This document shows, in pieces, positions 16,490 through 31,256 of a DNA stretch of 64,000 nt (its first letter is position 1; every line of letters begins with the position of its first letter). The stretch lies in NCBI RefSeq assembly GCF_900452395.1, contig NZ_UGNV01000001.1:2505501-2569500 (forward strand). Reading direction: 5' to 3'. Below the pieces are notes generated by a model. The model was not told the origin of the DNA. It saw only the letters and a program-made list of their open reading frames with translations, and ran no database searches. This stretch comes from Legionella beliardensis. GTDB lineage: Bacteria; Pseudomonadota; Gammaproteobacteria; Legionellales; Legionellaceae. Both the position numbers and the translations under genes were made by a program.

Positions 16490-16925
16490 TGCAACGATAC
16501 TAGAAAAACCTGGGTTTCGGCCTCTTGGGCCTGCACCCAGGCTACGTTTATTTAGTATGAAATAAATCACAACCGAATTACCGCGGCGTGTCTGCGGTAT
16601 CCAGTGAAACGGCACTGATGGGTATGGGTACCGTGGTCAAGCCACGGTATTTCGCACTAGGGTAGATAAAGCAAGTAGATGCTGTCTTAAAAAACAAAAA
16701 ACCTTTTAACGAAACTTTGCTTGCTATTAAAGACAGTATCTACATTTACTACAAGATTGCTGGATACGCGGTCATTCTTTCATTGATTGACTTCATTTTA
16801 CCGAAATACCGTGGCTTGACTATGGTACCCACTAAAATGAGAGTGATTAGCAAGTAGAGGGATGAAACGAATTGAAGCCCAGTTTCCGGCTCTTTGGGAC
16901 TGCGCCCAGGCCACGTTTACTGATT
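16490..16925. repeat. Composite of palindromic dispersed repeats
   Basis: This non-coding stretch holds several nested repeats. At 16509-16541, CCTGGGT is closed by ACCCAGG with a GC-rich centre. A related, more diverged direct copy lies at 16873-16919, and both end in ACGTTTA. Between them, GC-rich elements around 16578-16652 (TACCGTGG to CCACGGTA) and 16796-16838 are inverted relative to each other. Another inverted pair is GTAGATGCTGTCTT (about 16676) with AAGACAGTATCTAC (about 16730). The same families recur at 20.1-20.4 kb and near 49 kb. No gene was found here. Confidence 0.7.
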
Positions 16926-16969: not shown

Positions 16970-19048
16970 TCACACATCAACTCGCCATATTCCATCCCAA
17001 GTTTGTGGCGGTTTTTTTATTAACTTCTGGCAACGCTTCTTATATAAATTAGCTAATTGATCGCCAGGATAAGCAGGAGTAACATGGGTAAATAACTCAT
17101 AGCTTTTATGCCAATCCCCTTTTTGATAATAATAAAACGCATCCGTAAATCCTTGCTTATGCTTTTTTAGATTTTTGAGATCTTGGGCGGTAATCAGTTC
17201 ATATATTGTCGTACTTTCTTGCTTGCCACGCACAGCCACCTTATCTAGAAAACGAAAAGAAAAATATTGCTTAACTTGTTCAAAAGTAGATTGACTGACA
17301 ATAATCTGCGTATGATATATTTTATTCATGGCTTCAAGACGGCTTGCTAAATTCACTGCATCGCCTAAGGCCGTAAAATTTAATCGATCTCCTGAACCAA
17401 CGTTACCAACAATAGCATCCCCTGTGTTAATACTGATTCTTATAATAAACTCTGGAAGTTTGAGCTTTTGATTCTTAATATTTAATTCAGCCGCTTTTTC
17501 CATCATGTGAACAGCAGTTCGGCAAGCATGAAGAGCATGTTTTTTATCAGGTGTAGGCGTATTCCAAAGTGCCATAATGGCATCGCCTATGTATTTATCA
17601 AGCGTGCCTTGATGACTAATTACAGCTTCTGTCATCAATTGAAAATACTCAGAGAGATGCACCATTAATTGTTTAGGCGATATTGTTTCAGCAATCTTAG
17701 TGAAATCTTTAATATCAGAAAATAAAATGGTAATAGTTTGATGTTCGCCACCAACTTCAGCAATTTTACCAGTACGCAGCAATTTCTTTACCAATGAGCG
17801 CGGAACATAGCGTTGGAATGAATTAAGACTAGTGCGCAAATTTGATAGGCTCTTATCCATATAGCTAATTTCTTTAATCATAGTTTTTAGCAAAGGTTTA
17901 GGCTTAAGATTTAAACGCGTAATTTCTTGCGCTTCCCTTGCCAAATGTATAATAGGCCGAGAGATTTTTTGTGAAAAATAGCGAACAACTAGCACTCCTA
18001 GTAGAAGGATAACAATAGCTAATAGTAATGTTTTAAGGCTTAAGCTTCTAAGCAGCGCTAATACATCATTTTCAGGAACAATGATGATAATATGCCATAG
18101 TTCTTCTGAATTACCTTTAATAAAGATAGGTTCACTTACTAGAAAGAAACGTTGTTTATTGTATTCGTAAAGGATTATTGGCGTATGCTTTTCACTCCAC
18201 TGAAATTGAGAAAGAGGCAGAGGAATTTGAAACAGTTTAAGGTTTTCAGGAGTTAATATTTTCCCACGAATGTCTTTTTGATCATTAGGATTTCTATAAG
18301 CAATGACTTGTCTTTTTTCATTGGTAATATAAATCATTGAATTATTAGTTACAGGTAATTGGTTGATGAAATGTTGAATAGTATCAACTTTCAGATCCAT
18401 CCCTAAAACACCCAGTAATTGTTTGTTTTGATCATAAATAGGTAATGTCGCCGAAATGCCGGGTATAGCAGCTGTTTTGGTAGTAAAAGGTTGCAAATTA
18501 TAAATAGTTGACCAAGTTAATTTATCTACTGCAACTGCTTGTTGGTACCAGGGCCGGTTTCTTGGATCGTAATTAATGGTTAAATTAGTCTTTTTTAAAA
18601 AATTGCCTTGTTCATCGTATTCATAACGTATTTTATGCAATGGCTTTGTTGAGTTCATAATAATATTCGTTGCAACTATTCCTGCCGTTAGGCGATCAAT
18701 GCCGTACGAATCGCCATTGACTGTGCCATAATAAATGGCAGCTATTTCTGGGTTTTGATGTATCATTTTAAGAATTGAGGCAGTAAATTCATCACCATCA
18801 TCAATGACCTTATGAGTTATTAAATACTGAATTTGCATAAGATCACGATTAAAGGGAAGTAAATAATTATCAATACTGTGCTTAATTAACTTAGATGTTA
18901 ATTCAATTGAACTGCGGGCATTCGCACTTAAAATTTTATTTAATACGACATAATTAATACCAATAATAGTAAAACCAACAAGGCTTAACAAAAGCACAAA
19001 TAACGTGATTATACTAATGTAGATACTAAATTGATTGTATTTAAGCAT
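16970..19048 (-). CDS. Membrane adenylate cyclase, Cache-HAMP-class III catalytic domain
   Basis: The 692-residue protein has a TM helix near the N-terminus (about 10-35), a large double-Cache extracytoplasmic sensor (40-320, with the NPRNRPWYQQAV type motif), a second TM helix (about 335-355), a HAMP-like linker, and a class III cyclase domain (about 430-620). Metal-binding Asp residues are D445 (FSDIKDF) and D489 (IGDAIMALW). The adenine-selecting Lys and Asp fit DKYIGD and FTALGDAVNL, and the transition-state Asn and Arg are in NLASRLE. It should therefore make cAMP in response to an external small molecule. A CpdA-like phosphodiesterase lies 18 kb away. The gene is monocistronic. Confidence 0.92.
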   Translation of the reverse strand: MLKYNQFSIYISIITLFVLLLSLVGFTIIGINYVVLNKILSANARSSIELTSKLIKHSIDNYLLPFNRDLMQIQYLITHKVIDDGDEFTASILKMIHQNPEIAAIYYGTVNGDSYGIDRLTAGIVATNIIMNSTKPLHKIRYEYDEQGNFLKKTNLTINYDPRNRPWYQQAVAVDKLTWSTIYNLQPFTTKTAAIPGISATLPIYDQNKQLLGVLGMDLKVDTIQHFINQLPVTNNSMIYITNEKRQVIAYRNPNDQKDIRGKILTPENLKLFQIPLPLSQFQWSEKHTPIILYEYNKQRFFLVSEPIFIKGNSEELWHIIIIVPENDVLALLRSLSLKTLLLAIVILLLGVLVVRYFSQKISRPIIHLAREAQEITRLNLKPKPLLKTMIKEISYMDKSLSNLRTSLNSFQRYVPRSLVKKLLRTGKIAEVGGEHQTITILFSDIKDFTKIAETISPKQLMVHLSEYFQLMTEAVISHQGTLDKYIGDAIMALWNTPTPDKKHALHACRTAVHMMEKAAELNIKNQKLKLPEFIIRISINTGDAIVGNVGSGDRLNFTALGDAVNLASRLEAMNKIYHTQIIVSQSTFEQVKQYFSFRFLDKVAVRGKQESTTIYELITAQDLKNLKKHKQGFTDAFYYYQKGDWHKSYELFTHVTPAYPGDQLANLYKKRCQKLIKKPPQTWDGIWRVDV

Positions 19049-19221
19049 ACAATTTTTAAGCCTTTAACAAGCATTTTTAATTATATACTTATATTGTATA
19101 CGCAATTTTTGGATAAGAATGACTTAAAACCCTACAATATCACCGATTGCTTCTGGAAAGTGAACAAATACATTCACTCGTCTTTTTGCCAGCTGGCATT
19201 CTTGCGTAGAAGAAAGCTAAA

Positions 19222-19341
19222 CTAGAAAAGTTAAGTCGTTGCGAACCTTTATGAAATAAAGGTGAAGCAATCCAGTAGCGTACGTTTGTCAAAGCCCGAA
19301 CTGGATTGCTTCGCTGCGCTCGCAAAGACGAGCAAATGGAT
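19222..19341. repeat. Dispersed repeat with inverted ends (GCAATCCAGT family)
   Basis: GAAGCAATCCAGT at about 19262 is answered by ACTGGATTGCTTC at about 19301, followed by a GC-rich tail (GCTGCGCTCGCAAAGACGAG). This is a known style of short interspersed repeat in several proteobacterial genomes. A 61-codon frame across it on the minus strand is repeat-derived and not a gene. The rest of the 19049-19391 gap is AT-rich; only promoter sequence for the cyclase is expected there. Confidence 0.65.
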
Positions 19342-19391
19342 TAAAGCAAATGGCGGCTTTAAAGCTAGCGCTCCTTATCCAAAACCCTCAA

Positions 19392-19844
19392 TTATGCATA
19401 TTCTTTAACGGTAACTTCTAGCCATTGTTTATGACGTCTTTCGTCATTTAGCCCTTGTCTTACAATAGCAACTGCCTCAGGCCACTTACCAACCTGTTTA
19501 TTAATGCGCTCATAAGCGGTGTTGGTATCTGTCTCATTACTAATCATAGCCTTTAAAATGGCCTCATCTCCTAATAGGTTAGCCAAAATGACCTTACCTT
19601 GCGTAAGATACTGCTTCAAGTCAGGCCCCTCTGGCGCTTTTTGCTGGTGCATCGTTAACAGGCTTGTTATGTTTTCAATATGACGTATATGATCGCGCAT
19701 AAACCCCGTTAATTTTTTTCTATATTCTTTACTTTCTAGCCGTTCAATGGCTGCTTTATAAGCTTTAACAGCATCATAGTCCAATTCACACAGAGCATAG
19801 AGAGCATCATGAAATTCGTTTTGTGTTCCTACCATTGTTGTCAT
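19392..19844 (-). CDS. Ferritin-like four-helix protein (DUF2383/DUF892-like)
   Basis: The 150-residue, all-helical protein starts with an ELDYDAVKAYKAAIERL helix and has Glu and His residues at helix positions typical of ferritin-like folds: E17, HIRHIE around residue 51, and E-R-R-H in the last helix. The pattern resembles the DUF2383-type ferritin-like family. Such proteins are often stress-induced and their chemistry is not settled. A ribosome-binding site (AAGGAGAAAAAC) precedes the ATG. Next genes are far on both sides, so it is probably monocistronic. Confidence 0.7.
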   Translation of the reverse strand: MTTMVGTQNEFHDALYALCELDYDAVKAYKAAIERLESKEYRKKLTGFMRDHIRHIENITSLLTMHQQKAPEGPDLKQYLTQGKVILANLLGDEAILKAMISNETDTNTAYERINKQVGKWPEAVAIVRQGLNDERRHKQWLEVTVKEYA

Positions 19845-20098
19845 GTTTTTCTCCTTATTCTTATTCTTCTAAAAATCCTAGAGATAACAAAAAACCTTAG
19901 TTTCAGATTTAAAAATGAATTTTTTATCAGTATTGGTAACTAGTGCAATCTCCATTAACAGAACAGTCAATGTCCTATCTATTTTATGACACAATTTTTG
20001 TGCCTATTTACAACATAACATTATTAAATATTTTGTCAATATTATTGTGACATGAATTGAGTCAAAGATTAAAGATTGCTTAAATATATAGACATTAA

Positions 20099-20410
20099 GT
20101 AGCCTGGGTGCAGCGCAGCGAAACCCGGGTTGCAGTCCTTACAGACTTACACCCAGGCTACAAAAAAATCCATAGCCTCTACACTTCGCCCATAATTTAA
20201 ATCAATCATCATTGCTAAGCCCACCCGTAGCCTGGGTGAAATGTAGTGAAACCGGGGCTACTTATTGGGTGAATTCTTTAGATATACTCTTCAGCTACAA
20301 CAATCAGACTGAACACCGTGGTCAAGCTAGGGCATTTCCATAGAATGGAAAGAAGCCAAAGGAAAAACGAATTACTGCGGCTTGACCGCGGTATCCAGCA
20401 ATGTGGCACT
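20099..20410. repeat. Cluster of GC-rich palindromic repeats at the edge of the RiPP island
   Basis: Two copies of an AGCCTGGGT element occur. One at 20101-20160 is closed by ACCCAGGCTA, and a shorter one lies at 20227-20261. A third, ACCGTGGTCAAGC-type element at about 20318-20400 is related to the repeats at 16.6 kb. They fill most of the 19845-20432 gap; the remainder (19845-20098) is AT-rich without recognised features. The repeats directly flank the 3' end of the exporter gene and mark one boundary of the RiPP island. Confidence 0.7.
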
Positions 20411-20432
20411 TAAGTTATGGCAACATGTTAAC

Positions 20433-22526
20433 TTACCTTTCAGCTAAATTATCTAACTGAATTACCCTATCTGCCATTTGAATAGTTTCCTGGCGGTGGG
20501 CAATAATAATTTGTGTTATGGCAAGTGATTTAAGGGATTGGTTTATATTAATTTCATTGACAATGTCTAAGTGGCTTGTTGCCTCATCTAAAAATAATAG
20601 TTTAGGCTTTTTATACAAGGCGCGTGCTAATAAAATACGCTGTTTTTGCCCTCCCGATAAAACAGAGCCCATCTCGCCTACTTGCGTTTCATACCCCATG
20701 GGAAATCCCATAATAGTGTCATGGATACAGGCAAGCTGTGCGACTTGATAAACATAATCGAGATTAATTTCTTCAGCGAAAAAAGAAATATTTTCTAAAA
20801 TAGAACCTGCTAATAAGCAATCTTCCTGCATCACCGATGCGGTTAATTCCCGATAGTTTTTTAAGCCAAATTGACTGAGTAACATCCCATCAATATAAAT
20901 CTCGCCTTCTTGTGGGCTTAAAAGTCCCATCATTACTTTCAACAAAGTGGATTTACCACAGCCAGAAGGCCCGGTAATTGCTATTTTCTCACCGGCTTTA
21001 ATGGTCAGATTAATTTTGTTGAAAATAAAAGGCTCGCTCTTATCATAACGAAAGCTAAGGTTACTTAATTGTAAATTGCCCTTCATAAAGGCATGTTGCC
21101 CACGCCCTTGTGTTACCAACTCAGGCTCTTGTAAAACGATATCACTTAAACGATTTAATTGAATTGAAATTAATTTGTAGTCGAAAGCATAATGAATAAA
21201 AGAAGACGCTTTGTTAATTAATAAAAGACGGTAGGAAAGAAAGGCAACTAGCATGCCAGTAGAAAATTTGCTAGTTAAAATGAGCAGGGCCCCTGTAAAA
21301 ATAATTGCAATGTGATCTATATGAAACACTAACTGATTAATCACATCATAATTATTATTTAACCTTGAAATTCTAATATCAGCATTTAAAGCTTGTATAT
21401 AACTATTATGCCATAATTTAAAACGACCATTTTCCTTAGCAAACGTTTTAATGGGTACAATACTTTGTAATGTTTCTAAAAAGACTGATGCGGCCCTAGC
21501 ATGCTGGGTCACGGAAGTTTCTGTTTGATTTTTCAAACTACGATATGACAAATAACGTATTCCTAAAAATAAAAGCAGATTACAGCAAATAATTAGGGTA
21601 AGTTTTAAACTATAAATAATCATGACGGCTAGATTCATAATGACCATGAAACCGTCAAGCATAGTATTAATAAAGTCAGTACTTATTTTCTTTTGTATGT
21701 GATCAATTGTCTGAAATTTTGACTGAATATCACCTTTATGGCGACGAGAAAAAAAATCTAAAGGTAATCTTAAAAGATGGGTCACCACACTTGCAGAGAA
21801 CTTTTCTGTCAGATGACTCGTTAAATAAACTATCATATAACTACGACTATATTCGATAACACTTTGCAATAGGATAAGTATTAAAAAGGCAAAGGTTATC
21901 ATATAAAGATTACTCATATTACTCGTACCAATAATATCATCGGTGACATATTGAATTAATAAAGGATTTAATAGAGAAATCATTTCAATAGATAACGACA
22001 GTAAAATTAAAAAAATAATAAATTTATTAATCCCTCGTGCCATTTTCATGAAATGATAAAGCGTTAATTTATTATTATTTATTATTTTTTTAAATGAATC
22101 AGACTTTTCAACTTCTAATACGATGCCGGTAAAATGTTGGGATAATTCTGCTTGGTTATAGCGCTTAACACCAGTAGCTGGGTCATGAATAATGACATAA
22201 TTTTTTGTAACTTTTTTTAAAACAACGAAGTGGTTCATGTTCCAATGCAAAATAGCTGGAAGACGAGTAAATTTTAAATCATCTAAATTAACACGCAGCG
22301 CCCTCGTTCTAAAACCTAACTCTTGTAATAAATGACTAATATCAAATAGCGTAATCCCTTTTATGGAAGTATTCCTTAAGCTATTTAGCGCACTTAAATC
22401 AATTTGATGACCCCAGTAATTGCAAATCATCGTAACACAAGCATGACCGCATTCAGCAATTTCATTTTGTAAAATAACGGGTAAATGGCTAGCCTTTTTA
22501 AGACTAAAATTTAAACTATTAATCAC
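20433..22526 (-). CDS. Peptidase-containing ABC exporter (C39 protease, double-glycine leader type)
   Basis: The 697-residue protein has a C39 cysteine peptidase (1-140), a six-helix transmembrane region (about 165-450) and an ABC ATPase (about 470-697). The peptidase is complete: oxyanion Q20, nucleophile C26 in AECGHAC, H99 in NMNHFVVL and D115 in IHDPATG. The ATPase has Walker A GPSGCGKST, signature LSGGQKQR and Walker B LLFLDEAT. Such PCAT proteins cut precursors after a Gly-Gly leader and export the core. Both precursors in this island have that leader. It is translated with the upstream HlyD adaptor through a 4-base overlap and is the last gene of the island. Confidence 0.95.
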   Translation of the reverse strand: MINSLNFSLKKASHLPVILQNEIAECGHACVTMICNYWGHQIDLSALNSLRNTSIKGITLFDISHLLQELGFRTRALRVNLDDLKFTRLPAILHWNMNHFVVLKKVTKNYVIIHDPATGVKRYNQAELSQHFTGIVLEVEKSDSFKKIINNNKLTLYHFMKMARGINKFIIFLILLSLSIEMISLLNPLLIQYVTDDIIGTSNMSNLYMITFAFLILILLQSVIEYSRSYMIVYLTSHLTEKFSASVVTHLLRLPLDFFSRRHKGDIQSKFQTIDHIQKKISTDFINTMLDGFMVIMNLAVMIIYSLKLTLIICCNLLLFLGIRYLSYRSLKNQTETSVTQHARAASVFLETLQSIVPIKTFAKENGRFKLWHNSYIQALNADIRISRLNNNYDVINQLVFHIDHIAIIFTGALLILTSKFSTGMLVAFLSYRLLLINKASSFIHYAFDYKLISIQLNRLSDIVLQEPELVTQGRGQHAFMKGNLQLSNLSFRYDKSEPFIFNKINLTIKAGEKIAITGPSGCGKSTLLKVMMGLLSPQEGEIYIDGMLLSQFGLKNYRELTASVMQEDCLLAGSILENISFFAEEINLDYVYQVAQLACIHDTIMGFPMGYETQVGEMGSVLSGGQKQRILLARALYKKPKLLFLDEATSHLDIVNEININQSLKSLAITQIIIAHRQETIQMADRVIQLDNLAER

Positions 22527-23539
22527 AAGGTAAGCTCTCCATAAACACTAAAAATAGGATCTAAAACCCATTGCCATATTTTTCGCTTAGAACCTTCTAC
22601 AATCGCCGTTATAGTCATGCCTTGTTGTAGTTTCTTCTGATGACCATATATATTCACATACTGGCTAGCTAGTTTGGCAGTTACTTTATAATAAGGTTGA
22701 CCTATTTGAATAGATTTTTCATCTTCAGCGTCGGTTAAAATACTTTCATCAATCGATTCGATAACTGCTGGGTAATTGCCAAACCGTTTATAGGGATAAG
22801 CATCATAGCGTATTGTAATTTTACTCTTCTTATGCAAAAAACCTGACTGATTTACTGGCACAAATAAATTGGCAATTAGTTCTGATTGAATAGGCGCAAT
22901 TTTTATGAGGGGCTTAGTTAGGTTAACATACTGCCCTTTTTTAAAAATTGCAGCTGCAATAAATCCATCAACAGGTGCATAAACAATATAAGATTTCTCT
23001 TGTTTATGTCTAATTATTTCGACTTCTATTAAATTAATATTACGTTGTAATTCACTTATCTCTTGCTTTTTTTGATTATACAAATCTAAAGAAATATATT
23101 TTTTTAACAGCAGAGCTTTCAATTTATTGAATTGCTTTTCTTTAGCGTCCAATTCACTAATAATTAATTTTTTTCGTTCATTTAATTGTTTTAAAATGGT
23201 ATCCCTATGATTAGGGTAGTTATCGAAAATTGATTTAATTAAAAAAATAGCATCGCCTTGTTTAACTTGTTCGCCTTTCGCTTTATAAATGTGAGTAATG
23301 ACACCACTTTTACTCGGGTAGACGCTAACAACACCTTGTTGGTCATTAAGGCAGCCTATAACAACAAATTTTTCAGAGCATTCACCAAAAAAAATAAATA
23401 AAATAATACCCAAAATTATAATTGTAATACTATAAGCAATAAACTTAAGTGGAAAAGGCGTATTAATTGATACTGTACCTAACTGTGCTAAACTTTTATG
23501 TTTAATTACTTCAGGCCTAAATAGGGATTCATTATTCAT
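22523..23539 (-). CDS. HlyD-family adaptor for peptide export
   Basis: The 338-residue protein has one N-terminal TM segment (about 33-52) after a cytoplasmic tail. It then has a lipoyl half-motif, a coiled coil (about 115-180), the second lipoyl half (VYAPVDGFIAAAIFKKGQYV) and a beta-barrel region. This is the usual adaptor of type I-like bacteriocin exporters in Gram-negative bacteria, linking the C39 ABC transporter to an outer-membrane channel. Its stop overlaps the transporter start by 4 bases. It lies 54 bp after ATP-grasp ligase 1, so it is probably in the same transcript. No TolC gene is adjacent. Confidence 0.93.
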   Translation of the reverse strand: MNNESLFRPEVIKHKSLAQLGTVSINTPFPLKFIAYSITIIILGIILFIFFGECSEKFVVIGCLNDQQGVVSVYPSKSGVITHIYKAKGEQVKQGDAIFLIKSIFDNYPNHRDTILKQLNERKKLIISELDAKEKQFNKLKALLLKKYISLDLYNQKKQEISELQRNINLIEVEIIRHKQEKSYIVYAPVDGFIAAAIFKKGQYVNLTKPLIKIAPIQSELIANLFVPVNQSGFLHKKSKITIRYDAYPYKRFGNYPAVIESIDESILTDAEDEKSIQIGQPYYKVTAKLASQYVNIYGHQKKLQQGMTITAIVEGSKRKIWQWVLDPIFSVYGELTL

Positions 23540-23593
23540 ATTGATAATCTATTAATAGCCTGTAGCTAAGAGTTAAGCTACAGGTAGAGATAA

Positions 23594-24703
23594 CTAAGCA
23601 GCTTCGGTCTTTTTTAAAGCATTAAGCATGATATGCTTTTGCATATTTTCATAAACAACCACTGCAGCTTTTTCCTCATAATCAGCTAAACTGATAGTCT
23701 CTTTGTCTTTCCAATTGAAATAAGCATCTCTATTGAGAATAAATTTCACAAATTTATCTAACATTTTTATTGTTGGGCAACAGTCTTCTATCCAAAGAAA
23801 TTGACCTTGTTGATTAACTTCGAGAAAATAATAATCACCTTCTGGCGTGACTATAAAATCAAAGCAACCGAAAACTATACCTAGAGCATCCATGAAATTT
23901 TGTATTTTCTTCTCAAGAGAATAGGGTAACTTATAAGGCTCTACCTTTAATTCTAAAGGTGGAATATATCGCCAATCGTTTAAACCTTGAGGATGCTCTT
24001 GGGATGCAATTTTTGCAGCCACACTATGTGTCCCAAAACAGGTAATCCGCAACTCATATTTCTTTTTGATGTATTTCTGAAAAATTCCGGGCGTTAATTG
24101 TAATATCTCATTAGAAGGCAGCTGTTCTTTACAAATCGTTTTAGTGTAAAACATTCTTAAAACATCTTTTTCATACCAATGGTGGGCTGACAAGGGCTTA
24201 TAAACTGCTTGCTCATGTTCATACTGATTTAAAAAATATTTTATTCGCTCAGGTGAATTAGAAATTAGAGTCGGAGGGATTTTAAAGCCACATTGCAATG
24301 CTAGCTTTAATTGAAATAATTTAGAATTTGCGCGACTAATCGCATCATAAGGATTAATCCAAAAGGCATCATTAGCAAGAACTAAGGGAATACCATCATG
24401 AAAAAAAGTATTTTCTTTGCGAATAAATTCCTGATCGCCTTTAGCAAAGTTATTACCAATAAAAGGACGCCTAGCACGACGCCACCACACTATATCAATA
24501 TCATGATGATTTGTTAATGGCTGTTGTGATTCATTTTCTAATAGCCATGCTTGTTGTTCATTAGAAAAAAATATGCTGTTGGTTTGCTTGGTAGGCATAT
24601 CCGCGGTGAACCATAGACTACATTGATGCGATTTTTCCTCTAGCGCTAATTTTGTTAAAATGGCATGCACATCATCTGGTTCTGTAGAAATTAAAACATT
24701 CAC
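23594..24703 (-). CDS. ATP-grasp ligase 1, MvdD/graspetide-type
   Basis: The 369-residue protein has an N-terminal pre-ATP-grasp domain (STEPDDVHAILTKLALEE, then DIVWWRRARRPF) and a C-terminal ATP-grasp domain. In the latter, VYKPL is the nucleotide-binding strand, FQKYIKKKYELRITCFG the central strands, and FLEVNQQGQFLWIE (about 300-318) carries the Glu and Asn that bind magnesium. This layout is that of the MvdC/MvdD-like ligases that form macrocyclic esters or amides between Thr/Ser/Lys and Asp/Glu in graspetides. The nearby precursor 1 is its likely substrate. It is clearly homologous along its whole length to ligase 2, at moderate identity. Confidence in graspetide function rests on context and family. 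Confidence 0.85.
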   Translation of the reverse strand: MNVLISTEPDDVHAILTKLALEEKSHQCSLWFTADMPTKQTNSIFFSNEQQAWLLENESQQPLTNHHDIDIVWWRRARRPFIGNNFAKGDQEFIRKENTFFHDGIPLVLANDAFWINPYDAISRANSKLFQLKLALQCGFKIPPTLISNSPERIKYFLNQYEHEQAVYKPLSAHHWYEKDVLRMFYTKTICKEQLPSNEILQLTPGIFQKYIKKKYELRITCFGTHSVAAKIASQEHPQGLNDWRYIPPLELKVEPYKLPYSLEKKIQNFMDALGIVFGCFDFIVTPEGDYYFLEVNQQGQFLWIEDCCPTIKMLDKFVKFILNRDAYFNWKDKETISLADYEEKAAVVVYENMQKHIMLNALKKTEAA

Positions 24704-24823
24704 AATATTTCCTTAGTTAACGTTGGGTCACTATAAAAATGAACTATTTTGATAACGAATTAATCTTTTTTAATTTAGATCCGATCTAAAAACTACGCCT
24801 GTTACAGGCTAATATTTATTGCG

Positions 24824-24852
24824 ACACAAACGCTAGTTCATAGCGCTTGTGT
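24824..24852 (-). terminator. Stem-loop between precursor 1 and ligase 1 (attenuator-like)
   Basis: On the transcribed minus strand, ACACAAGCGCT pairs with AGCGTTTGTGT through an 11-bp stem with one G-U pair and a 7-base loop. A second perfect palindrome, GCCTGTTACAGGC, lies just downstream at 24797-24809. There is no good T-run, so full termination is uncertain. A position between precursor and ligase genes would suit partial read-through that gives excess precursor. Confidence 0.45.
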
Positions 24853-24973
24853 TGAGTTCATCTTAGTTGTTGTAATGTTTATAGGTTTCAATAAATATTT
24901 TTAAGAGAATGCTCTAAGTAGTTGTACCTTATTAAATTAAGTTACCTAATCCCTATAAAAATTTTCCTAAAGA

Positions 24974-25150
24974 CTAATCCCAATCTGAATCAGAATCTGT
25001 ATCAAATGTGCCATGTTTATTCGTATTATATCTAGTTCTTTGATAAGTAAGCCCTGGTGCGCCACCGCCTGCTGTCTTTTTTAATTCCTCTTCACTAATC
25101 TCTGTGGCTAAATTAAATGCTAATACTCGTTCATGATTATTATTTTTCAT
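24974..25150 (-). CDS. RiPP precursor peptide 1 (graspetide-type, double-glycine leader)
   Basis: This 58-codon gene is short and easily missed. Residues 1-29 form a leader: ERVLAFNLATEISEEELKK, then a Gly-Gly at 28-29, the cut site for C39 exporters. The leader aligns with that of precursor 2 (ERALAYQLAKEI and so on). The core, residues 30-58, has Thr at 35, 39, 43, 48 and 51 and Asp at 50, 52, 54, 56 and 58, giving a strongly acidic tail that ends in SDWD. Thr/Ser ahead of Asp is the donor-acceptor order of graspetides. AGGA lies about 7 bases before the ATG. Ligase 1 follows after 270 bp containing a stem-loop. Confidence 0.85.
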   Translation of the reverse strand: MKNNNHERVLAFNLATEISEEELKKTAGGGAPGLTYQRTRYNTNKHGTFDTDSDSDWD

Positions 25151-25160
25151 CTTGTTTTCC

Positions 25161-25200
25161 TATTAAGTAATTACTTAATAATATCCATATTATTAAGTAA
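25161..25200. promoter_or_regulatory. Operator-like triple inverted repeat upstream of precursor 1
   Basis: TATTAAGTAA occurs three times in alternating orientation: 25161-25170, inverted at 25171-25180, and again at 25191-25200. The first two form a perfect 20-bp palindrome, and the second and third form a perfect inverted repeat with 14-bp arms. The element ends 10 bases before the precursor 1 start codon, where a repressor or an mRNA structure could control expression. The regulator at 28019 is a possible partner. Confidence 0.5.
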
Positions 25201-25266
25201 TTGGGTTGGACTTCTATGCTCATCCTGAATTAGAAAAATCTAATTATTTCCATTAACTTAATTAGT

Positions 25267-26304
25267 TTATGCTAGCGACCATTTTTGCCAAGCATCAATA
25301 TCGGTATCACTGTAATTTTTCCCACTGATTTCTTTAAGTATTATGTAAGCAAATTCATGATTATTTGGCTGCTTTAAACGCAATATCTCGACTAATCTTT
25401 TTTTGCCTTTTGCAAGTATAATTTTCTTGCCATCGGTTGATTTAACTGCAGAAGATAAGATAGACAACGCTTTATTTCTATCTGTAGTGTAAGGTGAATT
25501 GATTAAGGGTAATATCGTATCTATATTGATATCGGATATATGCGCTTTTTGCATCGTATAAGCTATAACGCGCATGACATTATTGCGCACACCTTCACTT
25601 CTATCTTCTACACTTGGCATTAAGGTAGATATAATTTCCTTAGGATCCTTAAAATGTCCTACTAGAAAAGCTGCAGCTGCGCGCCTTTCAGGGTTTGGAT
25701 CTTCTTTTAGTGTTTTGATAATAAAATTTTTCTGCGTTGTAGCGCCTCTATTAAATATAGCTAAATAAGGTTTTAATTGCGCATGTGTAAAACCAGAAAC
25801 ACAATGATAAACAGGGCATGGATCAGCAGGATTAAGCTTATTTTCGTTTATTAAACGCATTTCTATATTATCAAACTCAATTCGTTTAGCTATCAAATCA
25901 TGTTTATCACGTTGATTTAATTTAATATTAACCTTAGGCTGCACGTAATGTAGCCTTTCTTTTTCATCATGTCGAACGACTTCAATTGTTGTATAACTGT
26001 TTTTGTCATCTGGGTAATAAATTGTCTGCAAATCAACAAATGCATAGCCTTCATTTTGTTTTATTTTTTCAGTTAAATTCTTTTTTCGTATCGCTAATTT
26101 TAAAAAATCTTGCTCATCTTTTTTTAAATCTTTAGTTAGAAGAGTTTTAGTTAAACTAGTCATTAATTGATTAACTTCATGTGAGTATTTTCTTAATACA
26201 CGATCAGCATTATTAGGATTATCGCCGTACAAATCAACAATGTTAGCCGCGCTTACAGTGCCAGATACAACTAACGCGGAAACGCATAAAAATTTTTTTA
26301 ACAT
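25267..26304 (-). CDS. Periplasmic/exported HEAT-repeat protein of the RiPP island
   Basis: The 345-residue protein has a signal peptide (MLKKFLCVSALVVSGTVSA, cleavage about residue 19). The middle part (20-170) is charged and unassigned, with a close Cys pair in DPCPVYHC. From about residue 185 there are HEAT-like repeats (NPERRAAAAFLVGHFKDPKEII and then SEGVRNNVMRVIAY). Its ATG overlaps the end of ATP-grasp ligase 2 by 7 bases, so it is translationally coupled and belongs to the island. HEAT proteins bind peptides or proteins. Roles could be maturation, release or self-protection in the periplasm, but none is shown by sequence. Confidence 0.8.
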   Translation of the reverse strand: MLKKFLCVSALVVSGTVSAANIVDLYGDNPNNADRVLRKYSHEVNQLMTSLTKTLLTKDLKKDEQDFLKLAIRKKNLTEKIKQNEGYAFVDLQTIYYPDDKNSYTTIEVVRHDEKERLHYVQPKVNIKLNQRDKHDLIAKRIEFDNIEMRLINENKLNPADPCPVYHCVSGFTHAQLKPYLAIFNRGATTQKNFIIKTLKEDPNPERRAAAAFLVGHFKDPKEIISTLMPSVEDRSEGVRNNVMRVIAYTMQKAHISDINIDTILPLINSPYTTDRNKALSILSSAVKSTDGKKIILAKGKKRLVEILRLKQPNNHEFAYIILKEISGKNYSDTDIDAWQKWSLA

Positions 26305-27422
26305 GCCTCTCTCCTACTAGAATGATTTACACTATTTAAGTCCACATGATAGAGTAAATTCTTGTTAATTAAGTCATTCATCTCTTTACGATATTTATCA
26401 ATGGAGTGAATGATATTTTTTTCGTTCCATTGAAAGTTAACTGTGCGATTACTTAGGAAGTTAATAAAAATATCGAGCATTTTAAATTTAGGCTCATACT
26501 CTTCTATCCATAAAAATTGGCCCTGCTCATTCACTTCAAGGAAAATATAATCACCCTCAGGCGTTACAATAAAATCAAATGAACCAAAAACGATGCCTAA
26601 TTTGCGCATAAATCGTTTTAAACGCTGTTCAATAATAGGTGGCAAACGATATGGCTCAATGGTCATTTTATTCTTTATAATTGCTCGCCAATCTACTCTG
26701 CCCTCGCTATGACATTGAGAATTTAATTTTGCAGCAACAATATAGTTGCCAAAGCACGTGATTCGTAATTCATATTCTTTGCGGATTTCTGTTTGAAAAA
26801 TACCTGGCGTAAGCTGTAAAACCTGATTAGAAGGAAGTTCTAAAAAATCAATTTTAGTTGTATACGCTATTTTCACATGATTTTCTTCAAACCAAAAATT
26901 GGAACATAACGGCTTATAAACCACGCCAGTGTCTTTATGATTTGCTATAAAAGAACGTATTTCTTTAGGATCATTTGAAAATAATGTCTTGGGAATGGTA
27001 AATCCACATTGAATGGCTAATTTTAATTGCAGTAATTTCCAATTGGCTCTTACTGACGCTTCTTTAGAGTTTACCCACCAAGCGTTTGGCGCAACACTGT
27101 GCGTAAGGCCTTCAAAAAATATGTTGTTTTCTCTATTAATAAAGGAAAAATCGTTTGGATGAATACCCTGTTTTGGTAAAAAGGGCTTGCGTGCTCGACG
27201 CCACCAAACGACATCATAATCATGCTCTGTATGAGACTCGTATTTATCTGCGCTTTTCCATTGATAGAAATCATTATCAATAAAAACAGAGTTTTTTTGC
27301 TTAGTTGGCTGATCTGCTGTAAATAATAGCCGTACATGATGGCCCATTTCCTCTAAGGCAATTTTTACTAAAGCAGCATGCATGTCATCAGGTTCAGTTG
27401 GAATTAAGTACTTCATTGTCAA
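26298..27422 (-). CDS. ATP-grasp ligase 2, MvdD/graspetide-type
   Basis: The 374-residue protein is a paralogue of ligase 1. It has the same pre-ATP-grasp start (PTEPDDMHAALVKIALEEMG), the DVVWWRRARKPF motif, the VYKPL strand, the FQTEIRKEYELRITCFG core and the FLEVNEQGQFLWIEE metal-binding end (about 303-317). Key ATP-grasp acidic residues are present. It lies 175 bp after precursor 2, which is its likely substrate, while ligase 1 sits next to precursor 1. The pair suggests duplication and divergence of a precursor-ligase unit. An alternative function as a peptide ligase of another kind cannot be excluded. Confidence 0.85.
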   Translation of the reverse strand: MTMKYLIPTEPDDMHAALVKIALEEMGHHVRLLFTADQPTKQKNSVFIDNDFYQWKSADKYESHTEHDYDVVWWRRARKPFLPKQGIHPNDFSFINRENNIFFEGLTHSVAPNAWWVNSKEASVRANWKLLQLKLAIQCGFTIPKTLFSNDPKEIRSFIANHKDTGVVYKPLCSNFWFEENHVKIAYTTKIDFLELPSNQVLQLTPGIFQTEIRKEYELRITCFGNYIVAAKLNSQCHSEGRVDWRAIIKNKMTIEPYRLPPIIEQRLKRFMRKLGIVFGSFDFIVTPEGDYIFLEVNEQGQFLWIEEYEPKFKMLDIFINFLSNRTVNFQWNEKNIIHSIDKYRKEMNDLINKNLLYHVDLNSVNHSSRREAC

Positions 27423-27447
27423 CGTCCAGTCCTATCCTTATAAAATT

Positions 27448-27543
27448 ACTTCTACACCTTTTAGGGTTAATAGTTGGCACAATTCTCATCTTAAATTTGC
27501 TAATTTTTTTACCTTTATTAAGCTAAAACTTAAGTGTAGAAGT
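27448..27543 (-). other. Long-range inverted repeat between precursor 2 and ligase 2
   Basis: ACTTCTACAC at 27448-27457 is exactly complementary to GTGTAGAAGT at 27534-27543, with 76 bases between. In the transcript from precursor 2 this could fold into a long hairpin ahead of the ligase 2 start. It matches in position the stem-loop between precursor 1 and ligase 1, which supports a shared expression-balancing role. Confidence 0.4.
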
Positions 27544-27597
27544 ATAAAAAGATAATAGTCATTAAGGTTTAAACTAATTTTTCAACTTATTAACTTG

Positions 27598-27780
27598 TTA
27601 CCAATCCATAGAAATATCTACAAAACTATCCCATGCGCCAGTACTACCTGTTGGCCTAAACGTTGTACTCGTTGTCACTTTCAAGCCATTTCCCCCACCG
27701 CCAGATACGTCTTTTAGCTGTTCATGATTTATTTCCTTAGCTAATTGATAGGCAAGGGCTCGCTCTTTTTTATTGTCCAT
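27598..27780 (-). CDS. RiPP precursor peptide 2 (graspetide-type, double-glycine leader)
   Basis: The 60-residue product has a leader with ERALAYQLAKEINHEQLKDV followed by SGG (Gly-Gly at 27-28), the classical C39 cleavage pattern. The core, residues 29-60, has a Thr/Ser cluster (T36, T37, S38, T39, T40, then T44, S46, T47) and three Asp residues evenly spaced by four (D51, D55, D59) near an aromatic C-terminus ending in MDW. This order fits macrocycle formation by an MvdD-type ligase. A strong ribosome-binding site (AGGAG, 5 bases before ATG) is present. It is the first gene of the island and faces the regulator gene. Confidence 0.87.
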   Translation of the reverse strand: MDNKKERALAYQLAKEINHEQLKDVSGGGGNGLKVTTSTTFRPTGSTGAWDSFVDISMDW

Positions 27781-27891
27781 ATTTTCTCCTAATTAAATGA
27801 GGTTGGTTGCTATGTATTCCATTAAATTGAAGAAGAACATTTTTATAACGCTCAGGTTTTATAAATATTCTTCTTTAATTTCATCGCCACG

Positions 27892-28004
27892 TCATGTTAA
27901 TATAATTTATTCATTTTTTAATTTAATTCATGTTAATTTATTCACTTTTATTCATTAAACCTTATTTATACTGTTTAGTCAAGAAGTTACGAATAATTTA
28001 TTCA
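27892..28004. promoter_or_regulatory. Direct repeats between precursor 2 and the regulator gene
   Basis: TAATTTATTCA occurs three times, at 27903-27913, 27934-27944 and 27994-28004. A partial copy (TTTTATTCA) lies at 27946-27954. The first two are each preceded by CATGTTAAT. The first two copies are 31 bases apart, about three helical turns. Lying in a divergent promoter region, they are good candidates for binding sites of the XRE/S24-like regulator, the last copy being just ahead of its own start. Confidence 0.5.
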
Positions 28005-28018
28005 TAATTTGGAGTTTT

Positions 28019-28663
28019 ATGAGCAATTCACCCATTAGTGATAATTTAAGCAAGCTCTTAAAGATACACCATGAGTTATCCTTAAGTGAGCTAGCAAGGC
28101 AAACGAATATCCCTCAACCGACGTTACACCATTTATTAAATGGAACGACGAAAAGGCCGCGCAGAAAAGTTTTAGAAAGCTTAGCTAATTACTTTAATAT
28201 TTCAATCGCACAACTCATAGGGCAGGCATCTTTATATGACTCTATTCCTGAAGAAGTGAAACAGAGTTTTAGCATTACCACCATTCCTGTGATTAGCTGG
28301 GATATGATAGAGAATTGGCCAAACAATCGACAAGAGGTAGGACAATTTGGGGAAATTATATTTACTAAAGAATTAGGGAAAAATTCATTTGCGTTAATTG
28401 TACAAAATGGTAACGTTTCTTTATTTCCTGACAACTCGATTTTAATTTTTGATAGTCAAAAAGAATTAAAAGACAGAGAATTCGTGATTGTATATTCCCC
28501 GAAAAATGGCAAGGTTCTCGTAAATCGTCTATTTATAGAAAAGTCTGACTACTTCATTAAGCAAGAACAACCTAACGGAGACATGAAACTCATAAAATTA
28601 AACTTAGACAGTGATAGAGTATTAGGCTCATTAATCGAAGCGCGTTTGGTGCAATTTCAATGA
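28019..28663 (+). CDS. XRE-family regulator with degenerate S24/LexA-like C-terminal domain
   Basis: The 214-residue protein has an N-terminal helix-turn-helix (about 18-60, SLSELARQTNIPQPTLHHLL) and a C-terminal domain laid out like phage C2/LexA repressors. The serine position survives in NVSLFP (normally GDSMxP). The catalytic lysine position is Asn (VLVNRLF, where VKRL is usual), so self-cleavage is unlikely and the domain may only dimerise or sense. It diverges from precursor 2 with 238 bp between them that contain direct repeats, and is the probable regulator of the island. It converges with thpR, 8 bp between the stops. Confidence 0.85.
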   Translation: MSNSPISDNLSKLLKIHHELSLSELARQTNIPQPTLHHLLNGTTKRPRRKVLESLANYFNISIAQLIGQASLYDSIPEEVKQSFSITTIPVISWDMIENWPNNRQEVGQFGEIIFTKELGKNSFALIVQNGNVSLFPDNSILIFDSQKELKDREFVIVYSPKNGKVLVNRLFIEKSDYFIKQEQPNGDMKLIKLNLDSDRVLGSLIEARLVQFQ

Positions 28664-28671
28664 AATTAATT

Positions 28672-29253
28672 TTAGGGAAATAAACAGGCTTTTCTTAATG
28701 GAAATTGCTTAAGCAACAGATACGTTGATGAATGCCGATTAAGATTACTTTGCAGTAAGCTAATATATTCGACTGACTGTACCGGCAATTGCGGTAGACA
28801 AATTTGCTCGAATAATTTGGCTGGTGGCTGGTATTTATGGAAGCGGCCTAATGTAACATGGCCGCGAAAGGCGCGTTTTTCAATCTGATAATCTATCGCA
28901 TTGATTGCGTGCCCTAGACAATAAGCTAAAGGTGCAAGCTTATCGGCTGGCTCAGCTTTTAGAGCAATCAGTCGCGGGTGCTCAGGTTTGGGAAATAGTT
29001 CTAGCTCGGTAAGTTCAAGATTAAAAGTGTCAGTATCTATTAATTTTAATTCCACTTGCTCAATTAACCTAGGTATGTCAGTGCACTTAATTGATTGCAG
29101 AAATTGTAACGTTACATGTAATTTTTCAAGCTTAGTCCAGTGTATCATTTGTTCAGGAATGACTTGATCTAATTGTTTTATTACACCCGCAATCCATGCT
29201 TGAGTGGCAGGTGATAAAGTAATGGCAAAAAAAGCCCTTATTGTTGCGCTCAT
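28672..29253 (-). CDS. thpR: RNA 2',3'-cyclic phosphodiesterase (2H phosphoesterase)
   Basis: The 193-residue protein has the two HxT motifs of the 2H phosphoesterase superfamily: LHVTLQFLQ (about residue 45) and GHVTLGRFHK (about residue 130). The start (IRAFFAITLS), spacing and length fit ThpR (formerly LigT), which opens 2',3'-cyclic phosphates on RNA and can ligate tRNA halves in vitro. It converges with the regulator gene and is not obviously part of the RiPP island. Confidence 0.9.
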   Translation of the reverse strand: MSATIRAFFAITLSPATQAWIAGVIKQLDQVIPEQMIHWTKLEKLHVTLQFLQSIKCTDIPRLIEQVELKLIDTDTFNLELTELELFPKPEHPRLIALKAEPADKLAPLAYCLGHAINAIDYQIEKRAFRGHVTLGRFHKYQPPAKLFEQICLPQLPVQSVEYISLLQSNLNRHSSTYLLLKQFPLRKACLFP

Positions 29254-29526
29254 AAATGGCTAGTTAATTTCAATCAATTTCTTATTTTCTATTGATACCA
29301 TACGTTAAGAAATTTCTAAATAAGAATAGTCAAGCGTTTTAGCTTATTTTAATTGGACTTTGTTAATCTGCAGCACGAGCTCCCTTCATTTAACCAAGAT
29401 TAAGTAAACGAACTCATCCTTTACAACATTGCAAAACACTTTTACTATGTAGAAATATTTAATGAAGGCCTATCGAGGGTTTATCTCAAATTACCTTAGA
29501 AGCGCTGAAGTTTTCAGGGAGAAGTT

Positions 29527-30327
29527 ATGAGATCAAAATTAATAGACGGTCTGGAAGTATTTAAAAATAAGGGATATAAGAAATTTGAAGAGCTTTTTAA
29601 ACTGTTAGCCCAAGGGCAAAGCCCTGAAGTTCTTTTTATCACCTGCTGTGATTCTCGTATTGATCCGGCTAAATTGACTAAAACAAAACCCGGTGACTTA
29701 TTTATTCACCGCAATATAGGCAATATTATCCCGCCCTATCCCATACCTTGTGGTGAAGCCGCAACCATTGAATATGCGGTAGAAGAATTGCAAGTAAAAG
29801 AAATAATTATTTGTGGCCATTCTCAATGTGGGGCAATGAAAGGCTTATTAGCGTCTAACCTTGAGCAAAAACGACCTTCTGTAGCAAGTTGGCTCGAGCA
29901 TGCGCAACAAGCCTTACAAGTAGCAGGTAGGGATGCTCTTGAAACTGATGCGGCTACAACATTAAGATCAGTGATTGAATGTAATATTCTAACCCAAATT
30001 GAAAATTTAAAAACCTACTCTATCATTTCTGAGAAACTGCAACGGCAAGAAATTACTATACAGGGTTGGTACTATGAGTTTGAAACCGGCAAGGTCTTTA
30101 TTTATGAAGAAACCATGAAAAAGTTTCTTCCGAGTGAAAAATTTTTAAATCAGGCAACCCAATTAAAGCAACAATCACCGAGAGAGCAAACGCTTGATCA
30201 CACGTCATCGGGTGATTTAGGATTTTTCAAATCAACACCAGCAGAAAGAGCAGAGGAGCCAGCAGAAAAAATAACAGATTCAAAAGATAAAGATTATACC
30301 TTATCTAATCAAACGTTAAATATGTGA
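29527..30327 (+). CDS. Beta-class carbonic anhydrase
   Basis: The 266-residue protein has the zinc site of beta carbonic anhydrases: C41 in CCDSRIDP, H98 and C101 in GHSQCGAM, with the Asp-Arg dyad D42 and R44. It interconverts carbon dioxide and bicarbonate in the cytoplasm. The catalytic part ends near residue 205. A polar tail of about 60 residues, rich in Glu, Lys and Ser, is longer than usual for the family and looks disordered. The stop is 2 bases from the convergent ubiX stop. Confidence 0.93.
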   Translation: MRSKLIDGLEVFKNKGYKKFEELFKLLAQGQSPEVLFITCCDSRIDPAKLTKTKPGDLFIHRNIGNIIPPYPIPCGEAATIEYAVEELQVKEIIICGHSQCGAMKGLLASNLEQKRPSVASWLEHAQQALQVAGRDALETDAATTLRSVIECNILTQIENLKTYSIISEKLQRQEITIQGWYYEFETGKVFIYEETMKKFLPSEKFLNQATQLKQQSPREQTLDHTSSGDLGFFKSTPAERAEEPAEKITDSKDKDYTLSNQTLNM

Positions 30328-30329
30328 GG

Positions 30330-30890
30330 TTATTCTTTCCACCGTTTAACAATTCCGATATCAATGTCAAATAAATCAAGCACACGCCCTACACTATGAT
30401 TAATTATGTCATCTAGCGTTTTTGGCTGATTATAAAAAGCTGGAATGGGCGGTGCGATAATCGCTCCCATTTGGGTGACTTTGTGCATATTTTCAAGATG
30501 ACCTAGATGCAAGGGCGATTCTCTAACCATTAGCACTAATTTACGGCGCTCTTTCAAGACAACATCAGCAGCCCGTGTTAATAAATTGGAGGTCATTCCG
30601 CAGGCAATACTTGCTAAGGTTTGCATAGAACAAGGGGCAATAATCATCCCTATGGTTTTAAACGAACCACTGGCAATCGCCGCAGCAATATCTTCAACAT
30701 GATAATATTTATGTGCTAATTGAAGTAACGCTTGCGCTGAAAGGGACACTTCATAACCCCGTGCTTGTTGCGCAGCTTTAGAGATAATTAAATGTGTTTC
30801 ATAATTGGTCTTTGCTAAAAATTCTAAAAGACGTATTCCATAAATAATGCCGGAAGCGCCTGAGATACCAATGATGATACGTTTAGTCAT
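30330..30890 (-). CDS. ubiX: Flavin prenyltransferase
   Basis: The 186-residue protein matches UbiX/Pad1. The N-terminal [21 protein letters not shown] loop binds [15 protein letters not shown] carries the conserved Ser/Cys region, and [13 protein letters not shown] is the dimethylallyl-phosphate binding stretch. It makes prenylated FMN for the UbiD decarboxylase in ubiquinone synthesis. It follows the CHMI-like gene by 12 bp, in one leftward transcript that may begin at the hybrid kinase. Confidence 0.95.
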
Positions 30891-30902
30891 TTTTAAAATG
30901 CC

Positions 30903-31256
30903 TCAGCCTTTAAAATAAGGTGAACTTGTCTCGATAATTTCTATCGAAAATTCCAAATTTAATGCTCTATTATCTTGCTGAAAAAGCTTTTTCATTAAAC
31001 TCAATAATTCTCGCCCTACGTATTCTTTTGTTGCATCAGAACGGCCAGCTAATATTTTTAAAGTTAAGTGCACAAAAGCATTATTTACTTGACCTGAGCC
31101 TAAATAAAACATGTTATGACAAATAAACCGACTTTTGCAGCTAGACAACTGAGTGGGTAGCAATCTTTCTAATAAGGAATGTGCCTGCGCAAAGAATGGC
31201 ATTACTGCAGCCTTAATGTCAATATTGTCACTGCACTCTAATATTAGATGTGGCAT
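30903..31256 (-). CDS. 5-carboxymethyl-2-hydroxymuconate isomerase family protein
   Basis: The 117-residue protein starts MPHLILECS, so Pro would be residue 1 after methionine removal, the catalytic base of tautomerase-fold CHMI (HpaF) enzymes. The later FVHLTLKILAGRSDATKEYVG stretch carries the conserved arginine region. Length is normal for the family. In the homoprotocatechuate pathway the enzyme isomerises a ring-cleavage product, but no other genes of that pathway are here, so the true substrate is open. Confidence 0.85.
   Translation of the reverse strand: MPHLILECSDNIDIKAAVMPFFAQAHSLLERLLPTQLSSCKSRFICHNMFYLGSGQVNNAFVHLTLKILAGRSDATKEYVGRELLSLMKKLFQQDNRALNLEFSIEIIETSSPYFKG

What the first reader, a model, noticed from the sequence alone, without database searches (positions are those of the whole stretch)
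20433..28663. Two-precursor, two-ligase graspetide-type RiPP island with C39 exporter
Seen: two MvdD-like ATP-grasp genes, two small precursor genes with Gly-Gly leaders, an HlyD adaptor, a complete C39 ABC exporter, and a divergent XRE/S24-like regulator, all leftward except the regulator. Known: MvdD-type ligases make omega-ester or omega-amide crosslinks in graspetides, and C39 domains cut after Gly-Gly. Inferred: the island makes and exports two crosslinked peptides. Double-glycine export of a graspetide, with paired ligase-precursor units and a periplasmic HEAT protein, is unusual and may be undescribed in this lineage.
Basis: partly seen in the sequence, partly recalled or inferred. Interest (0 to 1): 0.92.

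Follow-up and report, generated by a model that had tools for sequence, protein, structure and literature searches.

The report
Legionella crosslinked-peptide gene cluster with exporter
A Legionella relative carries genes that very probably make two small peptides, staple each into a hairpin with three side-chain bonds, trim them and pump them out; this kind of peptide is known, but the paired enzymes and a companion secreted protein make this branch distinctive.

Summary
The two ligases match graspetide ligases by profile. Both precursors have a double-glycine leader, and their cores carry three Thr and three Asp, each set spaced by four residues (T-x3-T-x3-T-x6-D-x3-D-x3-D). Among relatives, 37 of 73 non-redundant precursors have this three-rung ladder (shuffle mean 0.03). 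It equals the spacing of the nested fuscimiditide stem, so I predict tricyclic hairpins, cut by the intact C39 domain and exported.

It is not undescribed in the lineage: a two-precursor Legionella pneumophila graspetide, Gra-7, was dehydrated three times in E. coli (PMC9576775), and C39 exporters top the list of genes beside such ligases (PMC8939145). The ligase occurs in 68 of 143 Legionellaceae genomes, fragments included.

Not found described in what I could search: the HEAT protein is a core part (directly after a ligase in 51 of 52 cases), probably periplasmic and peptide-binding; two diverged ligase-precursor pairs travel together; and five precursors from four relatives put Cys exactly at a donor position, predicting native thioester rungs. 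I have no mass data for the window's own peptides.

The parts
20433..22526 (-). C39 peptidase-containing ABC exporter (697 aa): cuts after Gly-Gly and exports
   Evidence: Pfam Peptidase_C39 3.2e-37, ABC_membrane, ABC_tran; QNEIAECGHAC, GPSGCGKS, LSGGQ and LLFLDE present; GTG start overlaps the end of the HlyD gene by 4 bases
22523..23539 (-). HlyD-family periplasmic adaptor (338 aa)
   Evidence: TIGR01843 2.7e-26, below its cut-off; HlyD_3; HlyD-ABC order in relatives
23594..24703 (-). Graspetide ligase B (369 aa, GTG start)
   Evidence: TIGR04187 2.8e-56; 50% identical to ligase A; B clade in tree
24796..24852 (-). Two RNA hairpins between precursor B and ligase B, the second followed by a T run; possible partial terminator or attenuator
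   Evidence: z -3.8, 1 of 200 shuffles folds as well; a terminator-like scan hit, but such hits in the region are not above chance (5 against 4.1)
24974..25150 (-). Precursor B: leader MKNNNHERVLAFNLATEISEEELKKTAGG, core GAPGLTYQRTRYNTNKHGTFDTDSDSDWD (T-x3-T-x3-T-x6-D-x3-D-x3-D)
   Evidence: leader profile 6.7e-10; three-rung ladder
25267..26304 (-). Secreted HEAT/ARM-like protein (345 aa), start overlapping the end of ligase A by 7 bases
   Evidence: HEAT_2 7.7e-6, just under cut-off; AlphaFold mean pLDDT 81.8, pTM 0.79; family in 61 of 143 Legionellaceae genomes
26298..27422 (-). Graspetide ligase A (374 aa from TTG; an ATG lies two codons inside)
   Evidence: TIGR04187 8.5e-59; PDB 5ig9 1.4e-36; A clade in tree
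27598..27780 (-). Precursor A: leader MDNKKERALAYQLAKEINHEQLKDVSGG, core GGNGLKVTTSTTFRPTGSTGAWDSFVDISMDW (T-x3-T-x3-T-x6-D-x3-D-x3-D)
   Evidence: leader profile 4.4e-13; three-rung ladder
27781..28018 (.). Divergent promoter region with five TTATTC/GAATAA copies, probable operator of the regulator
   Evidence: 5 copies against shuffle mean 0.59 (0 of 300 shuffles reach 5); nearly the same spacing in five of seven relatives looked at
28019..28663 (+). XRE regulator with weak S24-like C-terminal domain (214 aa)
   Evidence: HTH_26 1.1e-11; Peptidase_S24 0.0035, below its cut-off

Best explanation
The island is a graspetide gene cluster of a family widespread in Legionellaceae. Shown by sequence: two paralogous ATP-grasp ligases each with an upstream precursor, intact C39-ABC and HlyD export genes, a HEAT protein with a signal-like N-terminus inside the operon, and a divergent XRE regulator facing an array of operator-like repeats. 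Inferred: each ligase binds the leader (ERxLAYxLAxEI) of its own precursor, phosphorylates three Asp side chains spaced by four, and esterifies them with three Thr spaced by four, giving a nested three-rung hairpin (outer T1-D3, middle T2-D2, inner T3-D1; loss of 54 Da). The C39 domain cuts after Gly-Gly and the peptides leave through the ABC-HlyD channel with a TolC-type pore encoded elsewhere (recalled, not searched). The HEAT protein sits in the periplasm and most likely binds the peptide, as immunity or escort rather than as part of the cytoplasmic ligase. What the peptides act on is unknown; protease inhibition is a guess from microviridin and plesiocin.
For: Ligase profiles. Ladder: three Thr/Ser-Asp rungs in 37 of 73 precursors against 0.03 in shuffles, none at spacings 2, 3 or 5 (one at spacing 2 if Glu is allowed); 16 precursors not used there gave 12 with two or more rungs against 0.36 and 6 with three against 0 (not filtered for likeness to the first set). 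Same T3/T7...D18/D22 spacing as nested fuscimiditide (PMC12291112). T1 and D3 are kept or lost together: 37 both, 11 neither, 8 and 3 single, as nesting predicts. A and B pairs: B cores of different genomes resemble each other (0.37) more than the A core of the same locus (0.27); Mantel r 0.49, 0 of 999 permutations. HEAT directly follows a ligase in 51 of 52 cases and ligase-HEAT-HlyD-ABC is the commonest order, 28 of 60 loci exactly. HEAT and ligase co-occur: 59 genomes both, 9 ligase only, 2 HEAT only, 73 neither. Of the 9 with ligase only, 8 show no exporter at the locus, which ties HEAT to export. Gra-7 of L. pneumophila lost three waters.
Against: No mass data for this organism. 36 of 73 cores have fewer than three rungs, 14 fewer than two. 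Ligase scores lie below every curated NCBIfam cut-off. Nesting is by analogy and one co-loss test whose register choice favours complete ladders and which ignores relatedness. G048 has ligase and exporter but no HEAT found, and three exporter loci lack HEAT in place, though HEAT lies elsewhere in those genomes. Identity of the L. pneumophila Gra-7 enzyme with this family was not tested: its accession is in a supplement I could not read.
Confidence: 0.78

Rival explanations
1. The HEAT protein is a biosynthetic partner or tailoring enzyme of the ligase, as MirC is for rosaritide, not immunity or escort.
For: It follows a ligase directly in 51 of 52 cases and overlaps it in 11. Partner-dependent graspetide ligases exist (PMC13097080). 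C163, H167, C168, R276, K278 and Q312 are the same in 53 of 53 sequences and could be functional.
Against: A signal-like N-terminus in the window protein and, by eye, in most of the 52 homologues listed; 9 of 68 ligase-bearing genomes have no HEAT (some of these ligases are fragments); it goes with the exporter rather than the ligase; an open copy stands alone in G064; Gra-7 was modified in E. coli by its ATP-grasp enzyme (whether a HEAT gene was in that construct I did not see).
Confidence: 0.22
2. The three crosslinks are staggered (T1-D1, T2-D2, T3-D3) rather than nested, giving a cage as in microviridin.
For: The even spacing on both sides fits either order; microviridin rings are staggered (PMC12291112).
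Against: Two-rung cores tend to lack T1 and D3 together, which nesting predicts; fuscimiditide (two) and amycolimiditide (four crosslinks) are nested.
Confidence: 0.2
3. One ligase serves both precursors, so the pairing is not functional.
For: Both Gra-7 precursors were modified with the same enzyme; several loci have two or three precursors for one ligase, e.g. L127 and L129; both window cores share the same ladder; L100 keeps a B precursor although its B ligase is only a fragment.
Against: Two diverged clades of ligase travel with two kinds of leader and core.
Confidence: 0.3
4. The ATP-grasp enzymes are RimK-like ligases that add amino acids, not graspetide macrocyclases.
For: The RimK-family model also matches weakly (36.6 and 20.3 bits).
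Against: MvdC, MvdD and TIGR04187 models score 169-199 bits; the PDB entries hit are ATP-grasp ligases 5ig9 and 5ig8, AMdnB and CdnC; the precursor ladder.
Confidence: 0.04

Closest known systems
Gra-7A and Gra-7B of Legionella pneumophila (graspetide group 8; PMC9576775, 2022)
   Same: Same genus in the broad sense, two precursors, ATP-grasp enzyme, three dehydrations per peptide, C39 protease (LahT150) cut localising them to the core of precursor A
   Different: The same ligase was used for both precursors there, two ligases here; sequences not compared (accessions in a supplement not readable here); a HEAT protein is not mentioned in the passages seen
Fuscimiditide and amycolimiditide (graspimiditides; PMC12291112, passages)
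   Same: In fuscimiditide, Thr donors and Asp acceptors spaced by four around a loop; both are nested stem-loops
   Different: Loop of 6 instead of 10-12 residues, three rungs instead of two or four, no methyltransferase (aspartimide) gene, a C39 exporter present
Rosaritide (MirA/MirB/MirC/MirD; PMC13097080)
   Same: TIGR04187 ligase, conserved extra protein, peptidase-containing transporter, three macrolactones
   Different: Partner is a predicted PpiC-type isomerase needed by the ligase; donors (8, 9, 11) and acceptors (22, 24, 26) are spaced differently and the rings interlock
Microviridins (MdnB/MdnC, MvdC/MvdD)
   Same: Ligase family; two ligases in one cluster (recalled)
   Different: There two ligases act on one core (recalled); here each ligase has its own precursor; no PFFARFL leader motif

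Membership tests
Graspetide gene cluster | MvdC/MvdD/TIGR04187-type ATP-grasp ligase | tested here: met
   169-199 bits to the three models, though below their curated cut-offs; PDB 5ig9 at 4.2e-54 with the family profile
Graspetide gene cluster | Adjacent precursor with leader and a core holding matched donors (T/S/K) and acceptors (D/E) | tested here: met
   Both window precursors; 59 of 73 precursors (these two included) with two or more rungs against 2.9 in shuffles
Graspetide gene cluster | Ester or amide crosslinks, loss of 18 Da each | not testable with these tools
   Needs mass spectrometry; Gra-7 of L. pneumophila lost three waters (PMC9576775)
Group 8 graspetides | Group 8 core consensus and ligase cluster | not tested
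   The defining papers were not seen; one, by a recalled DOI, is not held
Graspimiditides | Cluster encodes a PIMT-type methyltransferase | tested here: not met
   The eight island proteins were profiled and none is one; the other frames of 18000-31000 were only listed
Microviridins | PFFARFL leader motif | tested here: not met
   Window leaders read ERALAYQLA and ERVLAFNLA; motif as given in PMC8939145
Peptidase-containing ABC exporter (C39) | N-terminal C39 domain with catalytic Cys motif, plus permease and ATPase | tested here: met
   Pfam domains, motifs
NHLM/NHLP export system | TIGR03796 above cut-off | tested here: not met
   481.6 bits against a cut-off of 853.3
ARM/HEAT solenoid | Solenoid fold of residues 130-345 | tested here: inconclusive

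The most novel reading that the evidence does not exclude
Legionellaceae graspetide ligases build a three-rung hairpin from a fixed ladder in which Thr, Ser or Cys may serve as donor, so that some family members carry native Cys-Asp thioester rungs, a bond so far made by these enzymes only on altered substrates in the texts I could search; and each system comes with its own periplasmic ARM/HEAT protein that binds the exported hairpin and protects the producer. The window's own two peptides use Thr only.
Probability: 0.25. Interest if true: 0.75.

Novelty: new variant of a known kind. Interest (0 to 1): 0.52.

Why it matters
The ligase occurs in 68 of 143 Legionellaceae genomes searched, so the system is likely to matter to these amoeba-dwelling bacteria, yet the ligase and HEAT protein of a named member are still annotated 'hypothetical protein'. 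The ladder gives a simple rule for predicting ring number and loop size from sequence, the two-ligase loci offer natural pairs for studying leader specificity, and the HEAT family is a concrete candidate for a self-protection or escort factor of exported graspetides. If the Cys donors are real, they would be natural thioester-stapled peptides.

Tried and rejected
Rejected: plasmid mobility. L. adelaidensis NZ_LR134435.1, a 'plasmid' with the cluster, carries dnaA, dnaN, rpmH and yidC and looks like a chromosome piece. Rejected: a fixed insertion site. Five flanking proteins of the window match none of the 60 loci (up to 16 kb each) except a 43% carbonic anhydrase in L141; but ThpR of the two nearest relatives lies about 23 and 69 kb from their clusters on the same contig, so neither recent transfer nor a fixed site is shown. 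Promoter scan: 41 sites against 38.5 expected, uninformative. Hairpins between precursor and ligase elsewhere are weaker: z -1.7 (window A gap), -0.6 and -2.2 (the two gaps of L094). PDB by sequence for HEAT: alphaReps and armadillo or HEAT proteins, and two weak glutathione transferase rows; the N-terminal part (to about residue 127) of the HEAT protein was barely tested. Arg207/208, Asp234 and Arg240 of HEAT fit the general HEAT consensus (recalled) and were not used as evidence of a binding site. Regulator catalytic residues were not tested. Papers: ten searches; 'HEAT repeat' with 'ATP-grasp' and 'ribosomally synthesized' gave no paper; supplements and most subscription papers could not be read, so 'not found described' is limited to that.

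Dropped rows: L137 from alignment A4 (a stop codon at the chosen coordinates, redone without it). Of 93 frames hit by the leader profile, 88 passed E 1e-4; the 73 are these reduced at 70% identity and include one of the three frames without Gly-Gly (L134). The Cys test used all 88, not the 73. The leader profile was built from 68 leaders of the same loci, so its E-values are partly circular; those leaders came from upstream frames with a G[GAS] pair, and the core ladder was not used to choose them. The operator count used seven of the twelve related loci with a regulator hit.
Full report
What is there. All genes of the finding were confirmed at their coordinates, with domains from Pfam and NCBIfam. 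Order on the minus strand: precursor A, ligase A, HEAT protein, precursor B, ligase B, HlyD, C39-ABC exporter; the XRE regulator points away. Ligase A and HEAT overlap by 7 bases, HlyD and the exporter by 4.

Are the ligases graspetide ligases? The best NCBIfam model is TIGR04187 (199 and 191 bits), followed by MvdC and MvdD (169-182); none reaches its curated cut-off. A profile of 15 family members hits PDB 5ig9 (4.2e-54), 7m4s AMdnB, 5ig8 and 7mgv CdnC (that 5ig9 and 5ig8 are MdnC and MdnB is recalled). In 321 genomes of the class 18 match; outside Legionellaceae and one genome of another family (G246, 433 bits) the best is 182 bits, so this is a compact lineage. I file it as graspetide on these profiles and on the precursors, not on the cut-offs.

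Precursors and the ladder. A leader profile finds 88 precursor frames in 60 relatives' loci and the window; 64 of 68 ligases have one within 700 bp upstream, three of these without Gly-Gly. A genome-wide search finds precursor-like frames in 59 of 140 Legionellaceae genomes; all 59 are among the ligase-bearing genomes except G057 and G063, whose weak hits are other Gly-Gly peptides. After the Gly-Gly the cores vary freely except for Thr/Ser at i, i-4, i-8 and Asp at j, j+4, j+8 around a loop of 6 or 7 residues in 31 of 37. Of 73 non-redundant cores 59 have two or more rungs (shuffle mean 2.9, largest of 200 is 7) and 37 have three (mean 0.03, largest 1); with spacing 2, 3 or 5 none has three, or one if Glu is allowed as acceptor. 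Sixteen further precursors, none of them used though some resemble members of it, gave 12 and 6 (shuffle means 0.36 and 0). Four rungs do not occur among the 73. Both window precursors have three rungs with a loop of six. Fuscimiditide has T3, T7, D18, D22 with nested esters (PMC12291112, passages), and Makarova et al. note TxxxTx(6-10)Dx(1-4)D in candidate-phyla clusters (PMC8939145, section 6 part 1). T1 and D3 go together: 37 both, 11 neither, 8 T1 only, 3 D3 only, Fisher 6e-5, not corrected for relatedness or for the choice of register. This favours nesting but does not prove it.

Paired units. The midpoint-rooted tree separates an A and a B group (support 0.93 and 0.90). Eight of the 60 loci, plus the window, hold both. 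In these nine, B cores of different genomes are closer to each other (0.37) than to the A core beside them (0.27); over 64 ligases, ligase and core distances correlate at 0.49, leader distances at 0.44, no permutation of 999 reaching either. So the pairs are old and inherited together. Against strict pairing: both Gra-7 precursors were modified with the same enzyme, and L100 keeps a B precursor although its B ligase is only a fragment.

Regulation. Between regulator and precursor A lie five TTATTC/GAATAA copies. Of seven relatives looked at, all have four or five against shuffle means of 0.2-0.8; in five (L094-L097, L112) the spacing is nearly that of the window (about 30, 10, 43, 7), in L133 and L134 it differs. 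A strong hairpin pair lies between precursor B and ligase B (z -3.8), but the other three gaps folded gave only -0.6 to -2.2.

Cys donors in relatives. Of 88 precursors 58 have three in-register Asp. In 50 all three donors are Thr/Ser; in eight one is not, and five of those eight odd residues are Cys, against 18 Cys of 1203 other residues (binomial 4e-8, relatedness ignored). Off-register positions show 0 to 5 Cys of 132 to 161 residues other than Thr/Ser. The five lie in four genomes (G132 twice, G042, G079, G095). In the later set of 16, three more cores with three Asp have one odd donor: Val, Gly and Cys (L271, again G132), so six of eleven in all; L218 has C, T, S with Glu as first acceptor (read by eye). 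Thioesters by graspetide enzymes are on record only with altered substrates in the passages found (PMC13097080, PMC12291112).

Against the literature. Carter et al. count 21,584 predicted graspetides and list transporters for group 8 and others (abstract and parts 1-2 of 6 read); neither their main text nor Makarova's holds the words HEAT or Legionell-. PMC9576775 made Gra-7 of L. pneumophila and puts it in group 8 (section 11 and passages). Hence the system is a variant of a known kind, not a new one; the HEAT component, the paired ligases, the ladder rule in this family and the Cys donors are what I could not find described.

Noticed in passing
L113 447-641 and 49-243, L109 2429-2704, L126 6962-7171, L127 7568-7816 (also L271, L218): Precursors with Cys exactly at a Thr/Ser donor position of the ladder, predicting native Cys-Asp thioester rungs.
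   Followed up: partly
L132, L133, L134 (G103, G107, G108): Ligase kept without HEAT, HlyD or exporter; the upstream frame keeps the leader but has no Gly-Gly and a quite different, conserved C-terminal part ending IFPPSSHFYFI.
   Followed up: partly
L147 7831-8910 (G064): Lone open HEAT frame in a genome without a ligase match, as expected of an orphan immunity gene.
   Followed up: partly
L009/L217, L214, L215, L216 (G016, G020, G021, G017): Ligase without exporter, HEAT or recognisable precursor in one genus-level group; repurposed or decaying.
   Followed up: no
L222 (G138): Whole cluster present but exporter, adaptor, ligases and HEAT match in several pieces; decay or poor assembly.
   Followed up: no
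NZ_LR134435.1 (L210): Record labelled plasmid 26 of L. adelaidensis holds dnaA, dnaN, rpmH and yidC, so it looks like a piece of the chromosome.
   Followed up: no
window 20101-20159 and 20229-20238, 16534-16543: Repeat AGCCTGGGTG, two copies inverted about 40 bases apart beside the exporter end of the island; 4 in the window against 0.07 expected.
   Followed up: no
L274, L275 (G057, G063): Other Gly-Gly leader peptides (e.g. ARRKKAKKLSSEELNNVSGG) in genomes without a ligase match; possible unmodified secreted peptides.
   Followed up: no
L272 397-594 (G079): Core with Ser, Lys, Ser in donor register and Glu, Asp, Asp as acceptors, suggesting a lactam rung (read by eye).
   Followed up: no
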